Below are positions 12,879 through 35,109 of a stretch of 64,000 bases of DNA, in pieces. Within the stretch, counting starts at the first letter, position 1. Each line of letters opens with the position of its first letter. Source of the DNA: Clostridiales bacterium SIT11 (GTDB lineage Bacteria > Bacillota > Clostridia > Tissierellales > Peptoniphilaceae); the NCBI GenBank assembly GCA_001299455.1, contig CYUK01000003.1:1240001-1304000 (forward strand), written 5' to 3'. Made by a program: the position numbers and the translations under genes. The notes under the pieces are model-generated. The model saw only the letters and a list, made by a program, of their open reading frames with translations. It was not told the DNA's origin and ran no database searches.

Positions 12879-14399
12879 ATGAATACAAATTTTGGAATTT
12901 GGGGTTTATTACCGCCATTTATAGCCATAGTTCTAGCGTTGAAAACAAAACAAACAATTATGTCTTTGTTTATAGCTGTTTGGGTAGGTGCTACTATGTT
13001 AGCAGGAGGAAATCCTTTTATAGGATTTGCCAACATAGTATCTGAATTTATGATTCCTGCCATTAGTGATAATGCATCAATGTTGATACTCATTACTCTT
13101 TCAGGTGGTCTCGTCGCTATGTTAAGAGAGACAGGTTCAGCACAAGCTTTTGCAAAAGCGATTACCCATAAGATTAATACCCCTGTTAAGGCCCAGGTCA
13201 CAACAGCCTTGAGTGCTTTTATATTTTCATATACAGAGCCTTGTTTAATCTTAGGAACAATTATGAGACCAGTTACAGATTTAGTCAGAGTTTCAAGGGC
13301 GAAACTGGCTTATATTTTAGATTCCATGGGTTGTAATTTAGCCTCTTTTTCACCAATTAGTAGTTATGGACCTTTTATAGCCGGGCTTATAGCAACTCAA
13401 CTAACAGCAGCAAAAATAAATACCAATGAATGGGGAATATGGTTAAAGATGCTACCCTTTAACTTATATAGTTTATTTGCAATGGTAACAGTGATTTTTG
13501 TTGCTATTTTGTCTTTGGATATTGAAAAAATGTATGTAGAAGAAAAAAGAGCAAGAGAAACAGGAAAGTTATTAGAAGATGGAGTGGAACCCTTAATTCC
13601 AGAAGTCAATACAGTTTTCCCAGAGGGATATGAACCTACAATTTTAAATTTTATTTTACCAATGTTGGGTTTATTTGTATCTATTTTTGCTACAATATTT
13701 TGGTCAGGAGATATTGTTGCAAATGGTGTTCGAGGTGCTTTTCTTAATGCAAATATTGTCTTGGCAATTTGCATGGGATTTCTAGGGGGCGGCATTGCGG
13801 CAGGCCTTGTAGGAGTTGTGAGTAAACTATACACTCCAGTAGAGGCGTTTGACCATTTCACAGGTGGAATGAGAGATTTATCTTTTGTTGCCTATATTTT
13901 AGTTTGTGCATGGTCAATTGGGGGAATAACGTCTAAAATGGAAGTAGGCTTATACTTATCTGGTGTTGTAGATCAATATCTAACTGCCGGCCTTGTACCA
14001 GCCATGATCTTTTTATTTGGTGCAATTATTGCGTTTTCAACAGGTTCATCTTGGGGGGTGTGGGCAATAATGATGCCAATTGCAATTCCAATGGCAATCA
14101 CTTTTAATATGTCTATTCCCTATGTTGTTGGCTCGGTAATCAGTGGAGGAATGTTTGGTGACCAATGTTCACCTATATCAGATACGACGATTATGTCATC
14201 AACAGGTGCATCCTGTAATCATGTAGTTCATGTTACAACTCAATTACCATATGGACTTTCTGTAGGTACTGGTGCCTTCTTAGGATTTTTATTTGGTGGA
14301 CTAACTGGTCAATACTATTTAAGTATACTCGTGGCAGGCGTAGTAAACCTAGGTATATTGAGTGTTCTTAAAGTTGTATCAAAAAGACGGTATGCTTAA
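12879..14399 (+). CDS. NhaC-family antiporter
   Basis: A 506-residue integral membrane protein with about 12 hydrophobic segments. MFGDQCSPISDTTIMSSTGA near residues 425-445 is the hallmark NhaC motif, and SYTEPCLILGTIMRPVTDL is also characteristic. NhaC proteins exchange Na+ for H+ or couple Na+/H+ to organic substrates such as malate-lactate. Since the gene is co-regulated with an amidohydrolase, uptake of that enzyme's substrate or export of its product is more likely than general pH homeostasis; this is inference. The start follows AAGGGAGG. Codon use favours A/T-ending codons, unlike the flanking genes. Confidence 0.88.
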   Translation: MNTNFGIWGLLPPFIAIVLALKTKQTIMSLFIAVWVGATMLAGGNPFIGFANIVSEFMIPAISDNASMLILITLSGGLVAMLRETGSAQAFAKAITHKINTPVKAQVTTALSAFIFSYTEPCLILGTIMRPVTDLVRVSRAKLAYILDSMGCNLASFSPISSYGPFIAGLIATQLTAAKINTNEWGIWLKMLPFNLYSLFAMVTVIFVAILSLDIEKMYVEEKRARETGKLLEDGVEPLIPEVNTVFPEGYEPTILNFILPMLGLFVSIFATIFWSGDIVANGVRGAFLNANIVLAICMGFLGGGIAAGLVGVVSKLYTPVEAFDHFTGGMRDLSFVAYILVCAWSIGGITSKMEVGLYLSGVVDQYLTAGLVPAMIFLFGAIIAFSTGSSWGVWAIMMPIAIPMAITFNMSIPYVVGSVISGGMFGDQCSPISDTTIMSSTGASCNHVVHVTTQLPYGLSVGTGAFLGFLFGGLTGQYYLSILVAGVVNLGILSVLKVVSKRRYA

Positions 14400-14425
14400 T
14401 ATTAGCTATATTAGGAGAGGAAATA

Positions 14426-15850
14426 ATGAAAAAAGTAGATATGTTAGTAACAGCTCCTTTCTTTTATACAATGGAAGGAGATGGGGTTGGTTTTAAAGAA
14501 AATGTAGTCATGGTAATAGATCGTGGACGTATTATTGACTTTGTAGATACAAAACAAGGTAAAAATTTATATTCCGCAGAAGAAGATATAGTTCTAGACC
14601 ACCACGCTGTTTTTCCAGGCTTTATTGACGCCCATATGCACACAGCTTGTAATGTGATGAGAGGACTAGCTCAAGATACAAATAATTGGATGATGCATGG
14701 ACTTCAGCCCTTTGAAAATGTGGCAACTTCAGAAGCAAGGGATGCAGGTAGCTATGTTGCAATTATTGAAGCGATAAAAGCTGGAACGACAACCGTAGGC
14801 GATTTTGAAAAAGACATGGAGAATGTATGTAAATTTATAGAGAAGGTTGGCGTAAGAGGAAACATAGCTCAAGTAGTCCGATCGGCTAAATACAAAGTAT
14901 ATAATCCAGGAGAATTGTATGAATTTGATAAGCAGGAAGGTGAAAAAAGCTTAAATAAAAATATTGATTTGTATAAAAGATGGAACAACAAAGATGGCGG
15001 TAGGATAAAGATTCTTTATGGTCCTCAAGGGGCGGACTTTGTAGAAGCAAGCATGTTAGAGAGGATTCAGAAATTAGCGAAAGACCATAAAACAAAAATT
15101 CATATGCATGTCCAACAGGGGGATAGGGAAACTTACCAAATTGAAAAAAGATATGGAAAAAGACCGACAGAGTATTTAAACGATTTAGGACTACTGGATG
15201 AGACCTTAATTGCTGTTCATTTAACGGACTGTAAGCCAGATGAGACAGAGATTATTGCAAAATCTGGCGCTTCAATGATTGTAAATCCAGGATCAATAGC
15301 TATTATTGATGGCATAGTTTGTCCTAGTGTAGAGTTCCAAAGGGCAGGTGGGTATGTAGCACTTGGGTCTGACCAAGCTCCAGGAAATAATTGTCATAAC
15401 ATCATTAATGAAATGAAAAATGTTGCTCTTTTTAACAAGATAAAATATAAAGACCCAGAAGTTATGCCTGCCTGGAAAGCATTAAGAATGGCAACTATTG
15501 AGGGGGCAAAGGCCATAGGATTAGGCCATGATATTGGATCATTAGAAATTGGAAAAAAGGCAGACTTTATTGCAATAGACTTAAAGCAACCATCTATGCA
15601 GCCAGTTTATACTTGGCCTATGAGAAACATTGTCCCCAATCTTGTATATAGTGCAAGGGGTCATGAGGTTGACCTATCTGTCGTAGATGGAAGGGTAATT
15701 ATGTCTAAGCAAAAAATCATAGGTATTGATGAAATGGACTACATTGACCAACTAGGCAACTATCCAGATGATTTAGGGCATAAGGCAGAAAAAGAATTTT
15801 TTGAGGTAAATGGAATAAATGCTCAGTTTATGAGAGAAGGAAAACTATAG
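14426..15850 (+). CDS. Amidohydrolase (AtzB/SAH-deaminase-like)
   Basis: A 474-residue enzyme of the chlorohydrolase/deaminase branch of the amidohydrolase superfamily. Metal ligands are visible: HMH in FIDAHMHTA (about 70-78), a histidine in IHMHVQQGD, a later histidine in AVHLTDC, and aspartate in ALGSDQAPGNN. The C-terminal ADFIAIDLKQPSMQPVY closes the sandwich domain. Related enzymes deaminate or dechlorinate N-heterocycles (SAH, thiomethyladenosine, guanine, triazines). The start follows TAGGAGAGG, 26 bases after the antiporter. The following transporter starts on its last base. The substrate is unknown; operon and regulator suggest a dedicated uptake and hydrolysis pathway. Confidence 0.82.
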   Translation: MKKVDMLVTAPFFYTMEGDGVGFKENVVMVIDRGRIIDFVDTKQGKNLYSAEEDIVLDHHAVFPGFIDAHMHTACNVMRGLAQDTNNWMMHGLQPFENVATSEARDAGSYVAIIEAIKAGTTTVGDFEKDMENVCKFIEKVGVRGNIAQVVRSAKYKVYNPGELYEFDKQEGEKSLNKNIDLYKRWNNKDGGRIKILYGPQGADFVEASMLERIQKLAKDHKTKIHMHVQQGDRETYQIEKRYGKRPTEYLNDLGLLDETLIAVHLTDCKPDETEIIAKSGASMIVNPGSIAIIDGIVCPSVEFQRAGGYVALGSDQAPGNNCHNIINEMKNVALFNKIKYKDPEVMPAWKALRMATIEGAKAIGLGHDIGSLEIGKKADFIAIDLKQPSMQPVYTWPMRNIVPNLVYSARGHEVDLSVVDGRVIMSKQKIIGIDEMDYIDQLGNYPDDLGHKAEKEFFEVNGINAQFMREGKL

Positions 15851-29815: not shown

Positions 29816-31138
29816 ATGTCAAAGCAAGATAAGTTTAGCTCTAAATGGGGCTTTATACTCACATCTGTTGGGTCAGCCGTAGGTATGGCCAATGTCTGGG
29901 GCTTTCCGTACAAGGTCTCCAGCAATGGCGGAGGGAGTTTTTTAATCTATTATCTGATTTTTATCGCATTATTTTCTTATGTAGGACTTTCTGCTGAATA
30001 CGCCATTGGTCGCCGGGCAGGAACAGGGACCCTAGGTGCCTATGAGTATAGCTTTCAAAGCCGCGGCATGAAAAAGCTTGGCCGAATTGTAGGCTTTCTG
30101 CCTCTTATAGGTTCTCTCTGTATTTCCATCGGTTATGCCGTCATCACCTCCTATATCCTAAAGGCCCTCTTAGACGCCTTTACAGGAACCCTCATGACGG
30201 TAGATACCCAAGACTGGTTTGCTTCTTTTGCCCTCCAGGACTTCCAAGTTCTGGGCTTTCACTTGGCCGTGATTTTAATCACCCTTCTCACCTGTATTAC
30301 AGGAGCCCAGTCCATTGAAAAGGCTAATAAGATTATGATGCCAATATTTTTTGTCATCTTTGTCTTCTTGGCCATCCGGGTAGCCACCCTGAATGGGGCT
30401 GGGGAAGGTTACAAATTTATGTTCCGGATTGATGAAGCAGCCTTAAAAGACCCCAATACCATTGTCAATGCCATGGGACAAGCCTTCTTCTCCCTGTCTA
30501 TTACAGGGTCGGGGATGATTGTCTGTGGAGCCTACCTCCACAAGAATGAAGATATTGTAAGCGGAGCCAAGAACACGGGAATTTTTGACACCATTGCAGC
30601 CAGTGTGGCCGCCCTTGTCATGATTCCAGCCCTCTTTGCCTTTGGTCAAGACCAAGTAGGCGGGCCGGACCTCTTATTTATTATCCTGCCAAAGATTTTA
30701 CAAGAGATGCCAGGAGGACAAATCTTTGCTGTGGTCCTCTTCCTAGCTGTCTTATTTGGAGGAATTTCTTCTCTACAAAATATGTATGAAGTAGTTTGTG
30801 AATCCATCCTCCACCGGTTTCCCAAACTTTCCAGGAAAACCGTCCTTCTTATGATTGGCCTGGCTGGATTTATTCCAGGAATTTTCATGGAAGGGATTGC
30901 CAAATGGGGACCTTGGATGGACCTAATTTCTATTTACATTATTCCTTTGGGAGCCACCCTAGGAGCCATTTCCTGGTTCTGGGTCCTTCCCAAGGAAGAA
31001 CTTTTGGATGAAATTAACACGGGAATTGGCAACAAGAAAGTCTATGGGGACTTTTGGTACAAGCTGGGGAAATACATCTACGTTCCCCTGGCTATGTTAC
31101 TTTGTGCCATTGCCCTCATCTTTAAAGTTTCATTTTAA
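29816..31138 (+). CDS. NSS-family Na+-dependent amino-acid symporter
   Basis: A 440-residue transporter of the neurotransmitter:sodium symporter (LeuT/TnaT/MhsT) family with 11 predicted helices, the bacterial short form. TSVGSAVGMANVWGFPY in TM1 holds the Na1/Na2 and substrate-binding unwound segment; GGGSFLIYY follows in TM2; FFSLSITGSGMIV in TM6 is the second unwound helix. Bacterial members carry Trp, Tyr, Leu or Ala. The frame opens six codons upstream, but AGGAGGAAG fixes the ATG at 29816. It is monocistronic, with a consensus promoter and terminator. Confidence 0.93.
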   Translation: MSKQDKFSSKWGFILTSVGSAVGMANVWGFPYKVSSNGGGSFLIYYLIFIALFSYVGLSAEYAIGRRAGTGTLGAYEYSFQSRGMKKLGRIVGFLPLIGSLCISIGYAVITSYILKALLDAFTGTLMTVDTQDWFASFALQDFQVLGFHLAVILITLLTCITGAQSIEKANKIMMPIFFVIFVFLAIRVATLNGAGEGYKFMFRIDEAALKDPNTIVNAMGQAFFSLSITGSGMIVCGAYLHKNEDIVSGAKNTGIFDTIAASVAALVMIPALFAFGQDQVGGPDLLFIILPKILQEMPGGQIFAVVLFLAVLFGGISSLQNMYEVVCESILHRFPKLSRKTVLLMIGLAGFIPGIFMEGIAKWGPWMDLISIYIIPLGATLGAISWFWVLPKEELLDEINTGIGNKKVYGDFWYKLGKYIYVPLAMLLCAIALIFKVSF

Positions 31139-31160
31139 ACAAGATCAAAAGAGCTTAAAA

Positions 31161-31195
31161 AATGCAGGTGACTCCTTGGGAGGCCTGCATTTTTC
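31161..31195 (+). terminator. Terminator after the NSS symporter
   Basis: AATGCAGG (31161-31168) pairs with CCTGCATT, followed by further T. It may also stop the convergent 862-residue gene. Confidence 0.85.
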
Positions 31196-31205
31196 TTGCT
31201 TAAAT

Positions 31206-33794
31206 TTATGAATCGGCTTCTAGGCTATAATGCCCCAAAACCTGAGGAAGGTTCTGGTCCTCGCCTTCTTCGATTTCACGGCTTACCTGGTCTAGGAAGG
31301 ATTCCAGGTCCACTTCCTTCTTGCCGTAGTAGAAGAGCATTTCTCCGCTAGAAGATTCACTGGTAAAATGTGCTGTATCTTCAGCAATGAGAGACTCAAA
31401 GAAGCTAGAGGGCAGGCCTAGGGAATACAATTTATGGTCATGGCCCAGGGCCCGTAAATAACTTAAAGTAAAGTGAGACCCCGGTTCCACAAAGTCTAAA
31501 ATAGATTGGCGGAAATCCAAAAGATCTTGGCGGTGAATGCCCTTGTCTTGCAAGTATTTATAGGTGATTAAGGTTTTTTTGTCATAGTTAAAGAGGCAAA
31601 GGTCTCTCTTTAAAGAATAAAAACAAGTGAGGACATTGGACAGGGCCCAGAAGCGTTTAGAAAATTTATCTACAGGATACATGGGCTCGGCCAAAAGAAT
31701 AGAGTGGAAGAAGTCTTGGGCAAATTGAAACTTTTCCGAGATACAGTAGGCTTGGTAGACCTTAAACTTCATCTGCCGGCAGGACCGGGAGTTGATTAGA
31801 GAAGGGTCTTCATTGGGATAAAATTTCTTAAAGAGGGCAATGAGGTCGTCGTTAAAGTAAAAATCCCTATCCAACCGACTCCTAAATTCCTGGGCCAGGT
31901 TTAGGGGCATGACCTTCCGGTTAATGTCATAGCTGCCCTTGTAGTGGTAGTCCTCTATACACTTTAAATAAGAGGAAATAACCGAAGTATGGTGGACGCC
32001 ATACTTTTTTTCATATAGAGAAGCCAGGCTATGGAGGTCAATAGGCGAGTTGGCCTTTAAAAGGTCCAGCATTTGGTCTTCCCGGTTTCCGTCTCCAATT
32101 TGAATATTGGGCATCCGTAAAAATTTTATCTGAGGATAGTCTTCAGGGAGGCAGATTTTACGGAGGAGGTTATGGAGTTCATATTCATCCCGAATGTCGT
32201 AGGCGGCCATAGTCTTGGGATGGCGGGTAAAGAAGTAACGGCTGGAAAACTCCACATCCCTGTACTGGTCTAGGTTTAGATTTTTTAAAAGCCGCTTACA
32301 ATCATAGTGGTCAAAGGGATAGTAGCGGAGGGTCCGGCCAAAGGACCAAAGGACAAAGTTGTCGTTGGACAGCTTGTTCATCAAATTGTGCTTGGACAGG
32401 TTGATGCTGGGGTCCTTACTCAGCTGGAAGTTTTCAATAAAATCTTGGTAGAGGACATAGTAGTCATCAAAGGGAATTTGGTCCTGGCCATACTTTTTCA
32501 AGAGGTAGTGGATAATCTCTTGCCGATTTTTTTCGATATAGCCATCCTTTAAAAAGAGAATTTTTTGGGAGAGGAGACCCTTTAAATTATTCCGGGCTAG
32601 GTTGGAAATTCCCTTTTCCTTGAGGAGGTCTCCCATGGGGAGGCCTTGGGCCTTAATGCCATACCGGGTTTCAATGTAACCATAGGCCAGTTTTTCTTCA
32701 AAAATTTTTTCAAAAAGTTCCCGGTCCAGGTCATACTTTTGAATATAGAGTCTGTAGTAGTCTTCGCTGGTATAAATCTGGTCTGCATTTAAGTTGGAAT
32801 TCATGGCCAGAAGAATTTGCCGGACCCTTTCCCTGGAAAGGTCAAACTTGTCCCCAATTTCCTGGAGGGTTGTACCATTCATCCGGAGTTGGTAGACACT
32901 AGCCTCTCTGGGAGGAAACCGGTCTCTTAAAACCTGCAAAATAGAGGGATAGACAGGGAAGTAAAGCTGGCCCATAGAATTTAAAAATTTGTGGTTTTCT
33001 AAAAGTTCCAGCCGGTCTTCCACCAGGTCTTCAATGTGGGCAAAATCAGGCATAAAGTGAACAAGGTCATCAAAAGAAAGACCATCCTTGTGTTTCTGGA
33101 GACTTCGTAAAATATGGTGGTCCAAGACATCGCAAAAAGAGTCTAGCCGGTAAAGGCGGCTTAAAAAGGCCTTGTTTTGAGTCAAGTCCTTGGGATAGGA
33201 CTTTTGAGGCTGGTTGTCAAAGAAATTCCGGCAGAGTTTTAAAAGGTCCTGGTAAAAGTCATAGGAAGTTTGCCCTAGGATATCATTCATGGAGTAGATG
33301 AGCTCATTGCAAACATGGGCCGGAGTCCAGGCCTCCCCCTTTTCCCGGTGGAGGATTAAAACTTCCAGGGAATTCTCTAACTTTTCAATTTCATCAATAC
33401 AGGACTTCCCTAAGTAGGGAATGGATTTTAAATCAAAAAGAGAGGTGTCCATTAAGGCCTTGACTGTAAAAATATCTGCCGACTTGAGCCGGTGGCAGCA
33501 ACGGGAGGATAGGCCGCTATCTTCCAACTTAATATCCGAATGGATGAGGCCATTTTTGTCCATAAAAGAAATGTGGTCATCAAAGATTAAATTATTTTCA
33601 CTTAAAAAATCCTCCAGGGCTCTGGAAATTTCCAAAATAGAAATAGAGCCGAGGTTAGGGATTTTTAATAACTCAAATTTAGGTAAGTTCAAAAGATCAT
33701 CAACTGTATGCACGCCGTAAGCCCCAAGGGCATTTTGGGACCGGACACTTAAATGTAAAGAGGAGAGATTATCTTTTTTCCATCGAGAATCCAT
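31206..33794 (-). CDS. Large protein with two RNAP alpha-CTD-like domains and a sigma-70 region-4 HTH
   Basis: An 862-residue protein of unknown function. Residues 10-63 and 90-143 each resemble the helix-hairpin-helix domain of the RNA polymerase alpha C-terminal domain: LHLSVRSQNALGAYGVHTVD followed by IPNLGSISILEI, and LSSRCCHRLKSADIFTVKAL followed by IPYLGKSCIDEI. Residues 289-332 match sigma-70 region 4.2: DRFPPREASVYQLRMNGTTL, then IGDKFDLSRERVRQI. The remaining 530 residues are mostly helical with no motif I recognise; no nuclease, helicase or ATPase motif is seen. It is monocistronic, and AAAGGAAAACC precedes the ATG. A role as a DNA-binding transcription factor contacting promoters is inferred. 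Confidence 0.75.
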   Translation of the reverse strand: MDSRWKKDNLSSLHLSVRSQNALGAYGVHTVDDLLNLPKFELLKIPNLGSISILEISRALEDFLSENNLIFDDHISFMDKNGLIHSDIKLEDSGLSSRCCHRLKSADIFTVKALMDTSLFDLKSIPYLGKSCIDEIEKLENSLEVLILHREKGEAWTPAHVCNELIYSMNDILGQTSYDFYQDLLKLCRNFFDNQPQKSYPKDLTQNKAFLSRLYRLDSFCDVLDHHILRSLQKHKDGLSFDDLVHFMPDFAHIEDLVEDRLELLENHKFLNSMGQLYFPVYPSILQVLRDRFPPREASVYQLRMNGTTLQEIGDKFDLSRERVRQILLAMNSNLNADQIYTSEDYYRLYIQKYDLDRELFEKIFEEKLAYGYIETRYGIKAQGLPMGDLLKEKGISNLARNNLKGLLSQKILFLKDGYIEKNRQEIIHYLLKKYGQDQIPFDDYYVLYQDFIENFQLSKDPSINLSKHNLMNKLSNDNFVLWSFGRTLRYYPFDHYDCKRLLKNLNLDQYRDVEFSSRYFFTRHPKTMAAYDIRDEYELHNLLRKICLPEDYPQIKFLRMPNIQIGDGNREDQMLDLLKANSPIDLHSLASLYEKKYGVHHTSVISSYLKCIEDYHYKGSYDINRKVMPLNLAQEFRSRLDRDFYFNDDLIALFKKFYPNEDPSLINSRSCRQMKFKVYQAYCISEKFQFAQDFFHSILLAEPMYPVDKFSKRFWALSNVLTCFYSLKRDLCLFNYDKKTLITYKYLQDKGIHRQDLLDFRQSILDFVEPGSHFTLSYLRALGHDHKLYSLGLPSSFFESLIAEDTAHFTSESSSGEMLFYYGKKEVDLESFLDQVSREIEEGEDQNLPQVLGHYSLEADS

Positions 33795-34149
33795 GGTTTT
33801 CCTTTCTAAGAACTAGGGTCTGGGACCCTTTTATAAAAAACCCTTATAGATTTGGCCGTCGACTTTTTTAAGGTCATAAACTAAGGAAAGGGATCTAGAA
33901 AATAAAAATAGAAGTCGAAGCCAAACTAGTAAAACATTTTCACAGTAACTTCAAAATGAGAAACTTATATATTTCTATTATAAAAGAATAAGGGATAGAA
34001 TGCAAGAAAATGACTGGTGAATTTCATAAAAATTAGAGGAAAGCCTTCTTTTTGAAAAAATGTCTAGTTAAATAGTGAATTTTTACAAAAAATGTTTTAT
34101 AATAGGACCTAAGAAAAGTTTTTTTAAAATGTAGAAAGAAGGGGAGAAA
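33795..34149. other. 355-base divergent intergenic region
   Basis: AT-rich spacer between two divergent genes of unknown function; it must hold both promoters. Toward the plus-strand gene TATAAT occurs around 34098 with a poor -35. Toward the minus-strand gene, near 33820-33835, lies a short GGGTC/GACCC palindrome. No frame with a ribosome-binding site, no RNA gene and no repeat array were found. Confidence 0.4.
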
Positions 34150-35109
34150 ATGGGCGTACTTAGTAATTTATTGGGGGGACTCTTTTCCAAGAAGGAAAAG
34201 AAGGAGACAGACCTCAAAAAAAACCCAGTAGAAAAAAATGGTTTTCATGAAGTGAAAGAGGAAGGGAGTCTGGAGAAAGAAACCCTGGCCGAGAAAAAAC
34301 CAAGGAGGGAAAAACGGGCCCATGAGCCGTCAAAGGCCAAGAAAAAAGACCGGGGAGCCCTCCGCCGGGAAAGAAAATCCCAAGAAAAGAAGAGTCAAGG
34401 AGAGGAAGAAAAGCCTCTAAAGAAGGAAAAACCCCTAAGGGCAAGGGAAGAAAAGAAGCCAGAGGAAAAACCGAAGGAGGAAAGCCAAGTCCTAGAAAAG
34501 GTTCAAGAGGAAAAAGAAGAAAAAATCCCTGAAGAAGAAAAGAAAATTCCTGAAAAAGACGAGAAGAAGCCACCGGTAACAGAGAGTCCAGGACAAGTCA
34601 AAGAAGATAAGAAGGAAAAATCAGTGGAAGTCCAAGAAGATCTTACGGAAAAAGAAAAACCGGCTCCAAGTAAAGCTGAAACTGAAGAAGAGCCCCTTCC
34701 AGCTGAGGCAGAAACTCTAGAAGGGAAAGAAGAAGCACCGGAAAACCTAAGTCCAAAGCAAGGAGAAGTTGAAAAAATTGTTCCGAAGGTCCAAGAAGAA
34801 CTTGTGGAAAAAGAAAAACTGGAAGAAGTTAAACCAGAAGAAGAAAAGAAGACTCCAGGGGAAGGCCTTGATTTTGCAGCCATAGAAGCCTTAAAACCAG
34901 GAGAAGTTATGGATCTTCCCTCCTATGGGGACATCCAAGACCTGAAAATCAAGAGAGAAGACCCAACCTTCTACGATCTTTCCTTCACTTGTAAGGGAAG
35001 AGATTATGATCGAAAGAGGATCCATAAGAGCATCTTAAGGGGCCATCTAGAAAATTACCAAAAGACAAGGGCCCTGCCCTTAAAGAGCTTTAAGGAAGCC
35101 AACCTATAA
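34150..35109 (+). CDS. Lys/Glu-rich low-complexity protein with conserved-looking C-terminal domain
   Basis: Not recognised. The 319 residues begin MGVLSNLLGGLFSKKEKK, an amphipathic start similar in style to membrane-targeting N-termini, then run about 220 residues of Lys/Glu/Pro repeats (KPEEKPKEES, EKIPEEEKKIPEKD) that should be disordered. The last 80 residues are compositionally normal (GLDFAAIEALKPGEVMDLPS, FTCKGRDYDRKRIH, LENYQKTRALPLKSF) and may fold. No signal peptide or TM. AAGAAGGGGAG precedes the ATG and a strong terminator follows, so it is an expressed single gene. Possible roles include a cytoplasmic scaffold or membrane-associated adaptor; no function is claimed. Confidence 0.7.
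   Translation: MGVLSNLLGGLFSKKEKKETDLKKNPVEKNGFHEVKEEGSLEKETLAEKKPRREKRAHEPSKAKKKDRGALRRERKSQEKKSQGEEEKPLKKEKPLRAREEKKPEEKPKEESQVLEKVQEEKEEKIPEEEKKIPEKDEKKPPVTESPGQVKEDKKEKSVEVQEDLTEKEKPAPSKAETEEEPLPAEAETLEGKEEAPENLSPKQGEVEKIVPKVQEELVEKEKLEEVKPEEEKKTPGEGLDFAAIEALKPGEVMDLPSYGDIQDLKIKREDPTFYDLSFTCKGRDYDRKRIHKSILRGHLENYQKTRALPLKSFKEANL

What the first reader, a model, noticed from the sequence alone, without database searches (positions are those of the whole stretch)
31206..33794. 862-residue protein joining two RNAP alpha-CTD-like domains to a sigma-70 region-4 helix-turn-helix
Residues 10-63 and 90-143 look like alpha-CTD HhH domains (each ending with a LG-x-x-x-x-x-E-I helix), and 289-332 closely matches sigma region 4.2, including DLSRERVRQI. 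The rest, about 530 residues, has no recognised catalytic motif. Alpha-CTD binds UP-element DNA and activators, region 4 reads -35 boxes; a single polypeptide carrying both could act as a detached promoter-recognition factor, a competitor of the sigma-alpha contact, or a DNA-binding defence or regulatory protein. It is a lone gene, divergent from another uncharacterised gene.
Basis: partly seen in the sequence, partly recalled or inferred. Interest (0 to 1): 0.8.

Follow-up and report, generated by a model that had tools for sequence, protein, structure and literature searches.

The report
Orphan fusion of transcription DNA-binding domains
A bacterial gene fuses two DNA-binding pieces of RNA polymerase and one of a sigma factor to a large undescribed domain, and its relatives sit inside restriction-type and BREX-type anti-invader gene clusters, so it is probably a target-recognition protein that this genome keeps on its own.

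Summary
The gene (31206-33794, minus strand, 862 aa) does carry two RNA polymerase alpha-CTD domains (5.7e-23) and a sigma region 4 (3.3e-07). The other ~520 residues match no family searched but are a conserved domain of a rare Bacillota family. At 12 distinct full-core loci, 5 members are followed within 2-4 bases by a ParB-like and an SNF2 helicase gene (two of these also hold Sau3AI/MutH, Dcm and Vsr genes); one locus has three members beside Dcm, Vsr and a ParB-SNF2 pair; one member leads a BrxP-BrxC-PglZ (type-4 BREX) operon on a phage contig. Half the core is fused to a MutH nuclease in Priestia, and R-M genes sit beside ParB-SNF2 pairs that lack a member. The family thus looks like the DNA-recognition part of anti-invader systems. 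The window gene is a solo: same place in the one other species of its genus searched, native composition, constrained but fast-evolving, no such partner within the window and no ParB-like gene in the genome. Its present role is unknown; the structure prediction failed; no paper found describes the family.

The parts
31206..33794 (-). 862-aa protein: 2x alpha-CTD + sigma region 4 + conserved core
   Evidence: Intact ORF; syntenic orthologue of 839 aa in the other species of the genus that was searched (L027)
33606..33767 (-). alpha-CTD 1 (residues 10-63)
   Evidence: Pfam RNA_pol_A_CTD; 69 bits with an alpha-CTD profile made here, which includes this copy; keeps the R, N, G, S, E positions of the E. 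coli DNA-contact set but not the two lysines (alignment; residue roles recalled)
33366..33536 (-). alpha-CTD 2 (residues 87-143)
   Evidence: phmmer to 1doq 6.9e-07; 71 bits with the profile (which includes it); keeps the R, G and E positions, N replaced by H, S by C
32940..33365 (-). variable linker region (residues 144-285)
   Evidence: 28% identical between the two species; no family match
32790..32939 (-). sigma-70 region 4 helix-turn-helix (residues 286-335), recognition motif SRERVRQI at 320-327
   Evidence: Sigma70_r4 3.3e-07; motif in relatives listed
31209..32765 (-). conserved core without Pfam family (residues 344-862)
   Evidence: Core profile A8: 646 bits in the window protein, 150-719 bits in the other members (the model was built from 11 of them, this one included); in the core segments Pfam matches only sigma region 4 above its cut-off in the table shown
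32094..32198 (-). signature block, residues 533-567 (DIRDEYELHNLL...RMPNIQIG)
   Evidence: E539 L540 H541 N542 R560 M561 P562 invariant in the 10-11 aligned members; residues 501-600 72% identical between the two species
33795..34149 (.). intergenic region shared with the divergent gene 34150-35109(+)
   Evidence: Little conserved against G001; in 30900-34500 promoter-like matches 7 against 4.8 (SD 2.4) in shuffles, terminator-like 11 against 5.3 (SD 2.6); no element could be singled out

Best explanation
The protein is a stand-alone member of a family of large multi-domain DNA-recognition proteins that elsewhere serve anti-invader systems. In those systems I infer that the alpha-CTD pair (where present), the sigma region 4 helix and the C-terminal core bind DNA and position an effector: a ParB-like protein plus an SNF2 helicase that in the longer versions carries an N-terminal PLD-like nuclease domain; or the BrxP/BrxC/PglZ machine of type-4 BREX; or, in one fusion, a MutH nuclease. 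Shown here: the domains, the core family, the gene context and the fusions. Inferred: DNA binding, recognition role, recruitment. In the window genome the gene was probably acquired before the two sampled species of its genus split and has been kept without recognised partners. It most likely still binds DNA there, as an orphan recognition subunit turned regulator or as a partner of a system not identified.
For: (1) 2x alpha-CTD and sigma region 4. (2) Of 12 distinct full-core loci, 5 have ParB-like + SNF2 genes directly downstream, gap of 2-4 bases to the ParB-like gene (G586, G867, E. faecalis, E. lactis, E. casseliflavus); 1 has three members beside Dcm and Vsr with a ParB-SNF2 pair upstream (Exiguobacterium); 1 leads BrxP-BrxC-PglZ (786.9, 997 and 122 bits in PADLOC, PglZ cut by the end of the stretch). 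(3) G586 and G867 loci also carry Sau3AI/MutH, Dcm and Vsr. (4) Priestia: core profile positions 318-609 of 610 fused to a MutH domain, next to SNF2 + ParB-like. (5) Slot replacement: three loci with a ParB-SNF2 pair and no core match hold type III Mod+Res (Lactococcus, E. faecium) or Dcm, a Sau3AI-related ORF and Vsr (L. plantarum). (6) The phage protein fuses the family core to a module (992-1429, 7e-23) shared with proteins that stand near BREX-like genes. (7) Maintenance: codon-position differences 0.456/0.345/0.593 and a 72% identical signature block.
Against: The window gene has no such partner: ParB-like absent from G000, G001 and G018; none of eight partner proteins found in the 64-kb window; SNF2 only below cut-off in G000; PF08665 PglZ absent (an insensitive test: it also missed G259 and G777, whose loci hold PglZ-like genes). 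Three of 12 loci are solos and two lie at contig ends. The Enterococcus, Exiguobacterium, G586 and G820 members lack a clear alpha-CTD pair, and region 4 is altered or not found in Exiguobacterium 1 and 3, G586 and G820. The structure prediction failed (pLDDT 40.6). No DNA binding or phage protection has been measured.
Confidence: 0.55

Rival explanations
1. A transcription factor of the host: the alpha-CTDs and region 4 bind UP-element-like and -35-like DNA or RNA polymerase itself and switch a regulon, with no defence role.
For: The recognition motif SRERVRQI is intact; alpha-CTD 1 keeps most of the DNA-contact positions (alignment, roles recalled); in two species the gene is alone, chromosomal, in native composition (GC3 0.52 against a mean of 0.47, SD 0.07).
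Against: Relatives lie in restriction-type and BREX-type gene clusters; rare and patchy (3 of 249 genomes of the order with the full core); 44% identical to its orthologue, lower than each of 13 other shared genes (51-85%, median 70%; the lowest of these aligns over only 74 residues).
Confidence: 0.25
2. A regulator of the defence operon in which it sits (autoregulatory first gene), later left behind as a solo.
For: It comes first, directly before the ParB-like gene or BrxP, in the 5 ParB-SNF2 loci and the BREX locus; region 4 and alpha-CTD are classic transcription parts.
Against: 815-1449 aa with a ~520-aa conserved core is large for a simple regulator; part of the core is fused to a nuclease; R-M genes take its place in three other loci; the solo keeps the core under constraint without the operon.
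Confidence: 0.15
3. A decaying relic of a lost defence island without function.
For: No partners found; among the most diverged of the shared genes compared; the G018 copy holds an in-frame stop.
Against: Reading frame intact in both species over 838 aligned codons, second codon positions differ less than third (0.345 against 0.593), signature block 72% identical.
Confidence: 0.05

Closest known systems
Type-4 BREX (BrxP, BrxC, PglZ, BrxL)
   Same: A 1449-aa relative is the gene directly before BrxP-BrxC-PglZ on a phage contig; other region-4 proteins, some with alpha-CTD, stand near BrxP-, BrxC- or PglZ-like genes in 4 of 5 further loci examined with wide flanks.
   Different: The 2026 BREX survey (PMC12839542; abstract, section list, sections 23 and 34 and search passages seen) names PAPS reductase/DUF4007, BrxC, PglZ, BrxL and cysteine desulfurase; the parts I saw name no alpha-CTD/region-4 component of type 4. 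The window gene has no BREX neighbours.
PglW of type-2 BREX
   Same: A helical domain like the alpha-CTD followed by winged helices (section 23 of PMC12839542); PADLOC PglW hit 6.7e-06, best stretch 9-61, the alpha-CTD part.
   Different: No kinase or NERD nuclease match, and 15.8 bits against a cut-off of 990.
MzaA (MZA system sigma-like protein)
   Same: Region-4-like helix-turn-helix in a defence-associated protein.
   Different: 22.6 bits against a cut-off of 800; best stretch residues 285-327 only.
Sau3AI/MutH-type R-M systems with Dcm and Vsr
   Same: Share loci with family members, and one MutH nuclease is fused to the C-terminal half of the core.
   Different: The window protein has no MutH match and no such gene in the window.
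PbeA / PLD-helicase defence proteins
   Same: The long SNF2 partner (G586) matches PbeA models over its N-terminal PLD-like part (up to 3.4e-62) and NCBIfam phospholipD_antiphage (87.8 bits).
   Different: Below the NCBIfam cut-off of 1100 and the Pfam PLDc_2 cut-off; it is a partner of relatives, not of the window gene.
HARE-HTH proteins
   Same: One of the BREX-side region-4 proteins matches HARE-HTH (2.6e-07).
   Different: No HARE-HTH hit in the window protein; the founding paper (PMC3272235) is not held and was not read.

Membership tests
Sigma-70 factor | Region 2 (core binding, -10 recognition) together with region 4 | tested here: not met
   Pfam up to E=1 lists region 4 only
RNA polymerase alpha subunit | N-terminal dimerisation/assembly domain before the CTD | tested here: not met
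   Pfam lists only the CTD; rpoA models reach 63.5 bits at most against cut-offs of 228-523
Type-4 BREX component | Encoded with BrxP, BrxC and PglZ | tested here: not met
   No match to the phage BrxP, BrxC or PglZ in the 64-kb window at 1e-5; PF08665 absent from G000, an insensitive test; BrxP was not searched genome-wide. Met for the phage relative L041
ParB-SNF2 restriction-type locus | ParB-like and SNF2 genes adjacent | tested here: not met
   Neither in the window; ParB-like absent from the genome. Met directly downstream in 5 of 12 full-core loci, nearby in one more
MzaA | Curated model NF041931 over cut-off | tested here: not met
   22.6 bits against 800
BREX PglW | Curated model NF033442 over cut-off; kinase domains | tested here: not met
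   15.8 bits against 990; no kinase hit
The core family described here | Core domain with ELHN...RMP block | tested here: met
   645.7 bits with A8, a model that includes it; found independently from P0001 alone by tblastn: E. faecalis plasmids 1e-45
The core family described here | Core is a winged-helix DNA-binding array | tested here: inconclusive
   AlphaFold model unusable; no internal repeats by profile comparison, the only strong scores being pairs of segments that I had cut with overlap

The most novel reading that the evidence does not exclude
Promoter grammar as the target: these proteins read a composite UP-element/-35-like signal on incoming DNA with the alpha-CTDs and region 4, and the core hands the site to a helicase-nuclease or BREX machine, so that invaders are recognised by what they must keep to be transcribed rather than by a restriction site.
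Probability: 0.13. Interest if true: 0.92.

Novelty: new variant of a known kind. Interest (0 to 1): 0.62.

Why it matters
If right, parts of the transcription machinery have been reused as a recognition module that plugs into at least two different kinds of defence effector, and an undescribed ~520-aa domain marks a protein family present on 48 enterococcal plasmid records of one collection. It also gives a testable idea of how such systems might pick targets.

Tried and rejected
Internal winged-helix repeats: not found. Homology of the core to the BREX-side proteins without region 4: not shown (probability 2.5); the earlier 97% therefore rested mainly on region 4. Empty-site comparison: of the window genes tested only the deacetylase (the anchor used) and scattered weaker or single matches were found around it in 6 genomes outside the genus, so no empty site could be read; G018 has its copy of the family gene on another contig. 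Upstream regulatory element: nothing convincing. Phages collection: none with P0001 at 1e-3; 14 records with the G251 relative, all over its alpha-CTD only. Hit L022 lies in an RpoD-like 405-aa ORF. Viral scans gave no new contig.

Full report
What is there. The ORF at 31206-33794 is on the minus strand, 862 aa, intact. Pfam gives RNA_pol_A_CTD twice (5.7e-23) and Sigma70_r4 once (3.3e-07) and nothing else above a cut-off. PDB sequence matches agree for both alpha-CTDs. In the alignment, alpha-CTD 1 keeps the positions that in E. coli are R265, N268, G296, S299 and E302 (numbers and roles recalled) but has S-I in place of K297-K298; copy 2 keeps R, G and E, with H for N268 and C for S299 (alignment). 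Region 4 keeps the recognition motif SRERVRQI. No region 2 and no alpha-NTD is found, so it is neither a sigma factor nor an alpha subunit.

The rest is a family domain. Residues ~344-862 match no Pfam family above cut-off, and NCBIfam, as far as its capped lists show, gives only rpoA, sigma, PglW and similar partial matches below cut-off. Yet they define a family with invariant E539 L540 H541 N542 ... R560 M561 P562. Between the two species of the genus the block 501-600 is 72% identical, alpha-CTD 1 59%, region 4 54%, alpha-CTD 2 42%, the end 701-862 29% and the linker 144-285 28%.

Distribution. Full-core members in genome samples: 3 of 249 in the order (own, G001, G018; a fourth hit, G195, matches region 4 only), 3 of 398 in the phylum sample (own, G251, G586; G259 region 4 only), 1 of 391 in the class sample (own; three further short hits near region 4), 1 of 73 in the order of G251 (two further short hits), 3 of 189 in the order of G586 (G586, G867, G820; six further short hits). 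Plasmids: 52 records at E 1e-3 with P0001, namely Enterococcus 48, Exiguobacterium 2, Priestia 2. IMG/VR: one contig. The set is rare and patchy. A tree of 14 cores needs at least two changes of the 'alpha-CTD pair' label; the window and G001 group together (100/100); four of its 11 inner branches are unresolved.

Neighbourhoods. I count 12 distinct full-core loci (window, L027, L028, L037, L038, L054, L055, L041, L023, L026, L067, L025). Left out as duplicates are other records of the same places and L068, which shows the same E. faecalis arrangement with the ParB-like gene annotated in two pieces; L024 (half core) is counted apart. Five have ParB-like + SNF2 genes directly downstream (L038, L054, L023, L026, L067; gap of 2-4 bases to the ParB-like gene). 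L038 and L054 also hold Sau3AI/MutH, Dcm and Vsr genes. The long SNF2 partners have an N-terminal PLD-like part (L038: PbeA models up to 3.4e-62; Pfam PLDc_2 8e-05 but below its cut-off); the 620-aa Enterococcus versions lack it (alignment). One locus (L025) has three tandem members next to Dcm and Vsr, with an SNF2 gene and a ParB-like gene (41% over 385 residues) upstream. One (L041) is the phage-contig BREX case: BrxP 786.9 bits, BrxC 997, PglZ 122 in PADLOC. Two lie at contig ends (L037, L055); G251 holds the ParB-like + PLD-SNF2 pair near the start of another contig (L059), which may be the other half of a split operon, not proven; G820 has no ParB-like gene. Three are solos (window, L027, L028). 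In Priestia the core's C-terminal half is fused to MutH beside SNF2 + ParB-like.

Slot replacement and fusion. The ParB-like protein of G586 matches 66 plasmid records. I opened five of them for diversity, besides three opened before. Of the five, two hold a family member (E. casseliflavus L067, E. faecalis L068). In three the core profiles find nothing: type III Mod+Res stand beside the pair in L065 and L066, and Dcm, a 247-aa ORF related to Sau3AI (31% over 240 residues, 4e-33) and Vsr in L064. The 1449-aa phage protein holds 2 alpha-CTDs, region 4, the family core (367-917) and then a module (992-1429, 7e-23) shared with the proteins that stand near BREX-like genes in L039, L040, L057 and L058 (L056 carries the module but no BREX neighbour in the 19.9 kb seen; five further loci of this kind were fetched with short flanks and not judged). 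Those five proteins share region 4, and three of them have an alpha-CTD match (L056, L057, L058), but their own module is not demonstrably related to this family's core.

The window gene. It is syntenic with G001 and 44% identical there, lower than 13 other shared genes (51-85%, median 70%; the lowest, its divergent neighbour, aligns over only 74 residues, so that gene may be as diverged). Codon-position differences 0.456/0.345/0.593 over 838 codons show protein-level constraint, and GC3 0.52 lies within the window's range (mean 0.47, SD 0.07, 29 long ORFs including it). Partners: none of ParB-like, SNF2, Sau3AI, Dcm, Vsr, BrxP, BrxC, PglZ in the 64-kb window at 1e-5; ParB-like absent in G000, G001 and G018; SNF2 in G000 only below cut-off, but G001 has SNF2 genes elsewhere; PF08665 absent, a weak test because it also missed G777, whose locus has a PADLOC PglZ. 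BrxP and R-M genes were not searched genome-wide.

Reading. The repeated pairing with DNA helicase, nuclease and modification genes, the MutH fusion and the slot replacement make target recognition for anti-invader systems the best reading of the family (0.55). Transcription regulation remains the main rival for the solo. Literature: full-text searches showed no description of this architecture; the lists were capped (15 of 549, 10 of 28, 8 of 1026, 8 of 13 shown). PMC12839542 (abstract, section list, sections 23 and 34, passages) and PMC10853773 (passages) were looked at, other papers only in search listings. Most subscription papers are not in that library, so absence there is weak evidence.

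Noticed in passing
L041 8001-20345 (IMG/VR contig IMGVR_UViG_3300012156_000101): BrxP-BrxC-PglZ (type-4 BREX) genes downstream of tail- and lysin-like genes of a phage contig, directly after a 1449-aa fusion protein.
   Followed up: partly
L039, L040, L057, L058: Proteins of 820-990 aa with region 4 (some with alpha-CTD, one with HARE-HTH) stand near BREX-like genes; they share a second undescribed module (A9).
   Followed up: partly
L025 9227-18138: Three tandem, diverged family members after Vsr on an Exiguobacterium plasmid; two have altered recognition motifs.
   Followed up: no
L028 8517-11279 (G018): The family member of another genus carries one in-frame stop after region 4.
   Followed up: no
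L064, L065, L066: ParB-like + SNF2 pair occurs with different R-M partners (Dcm/Sau3AI-like/Vsr, type III), suggesting an interchangeable accessory module.
   Followed up: partly
window 12879-15850(+): Two ORFs (506 and 474 aa) with the lowest GC3 of the 29 long window ORFs (0.24 and 0.28 against a mean of 0.47), possibly foreign.
   Followed up: no
window 34150-35109(+): Divergent neighbour is a 319-aa, lysine/glutamate-rich protein; only a 74-residue stretch aligns with its counterpart in G001.
   Followed up: no
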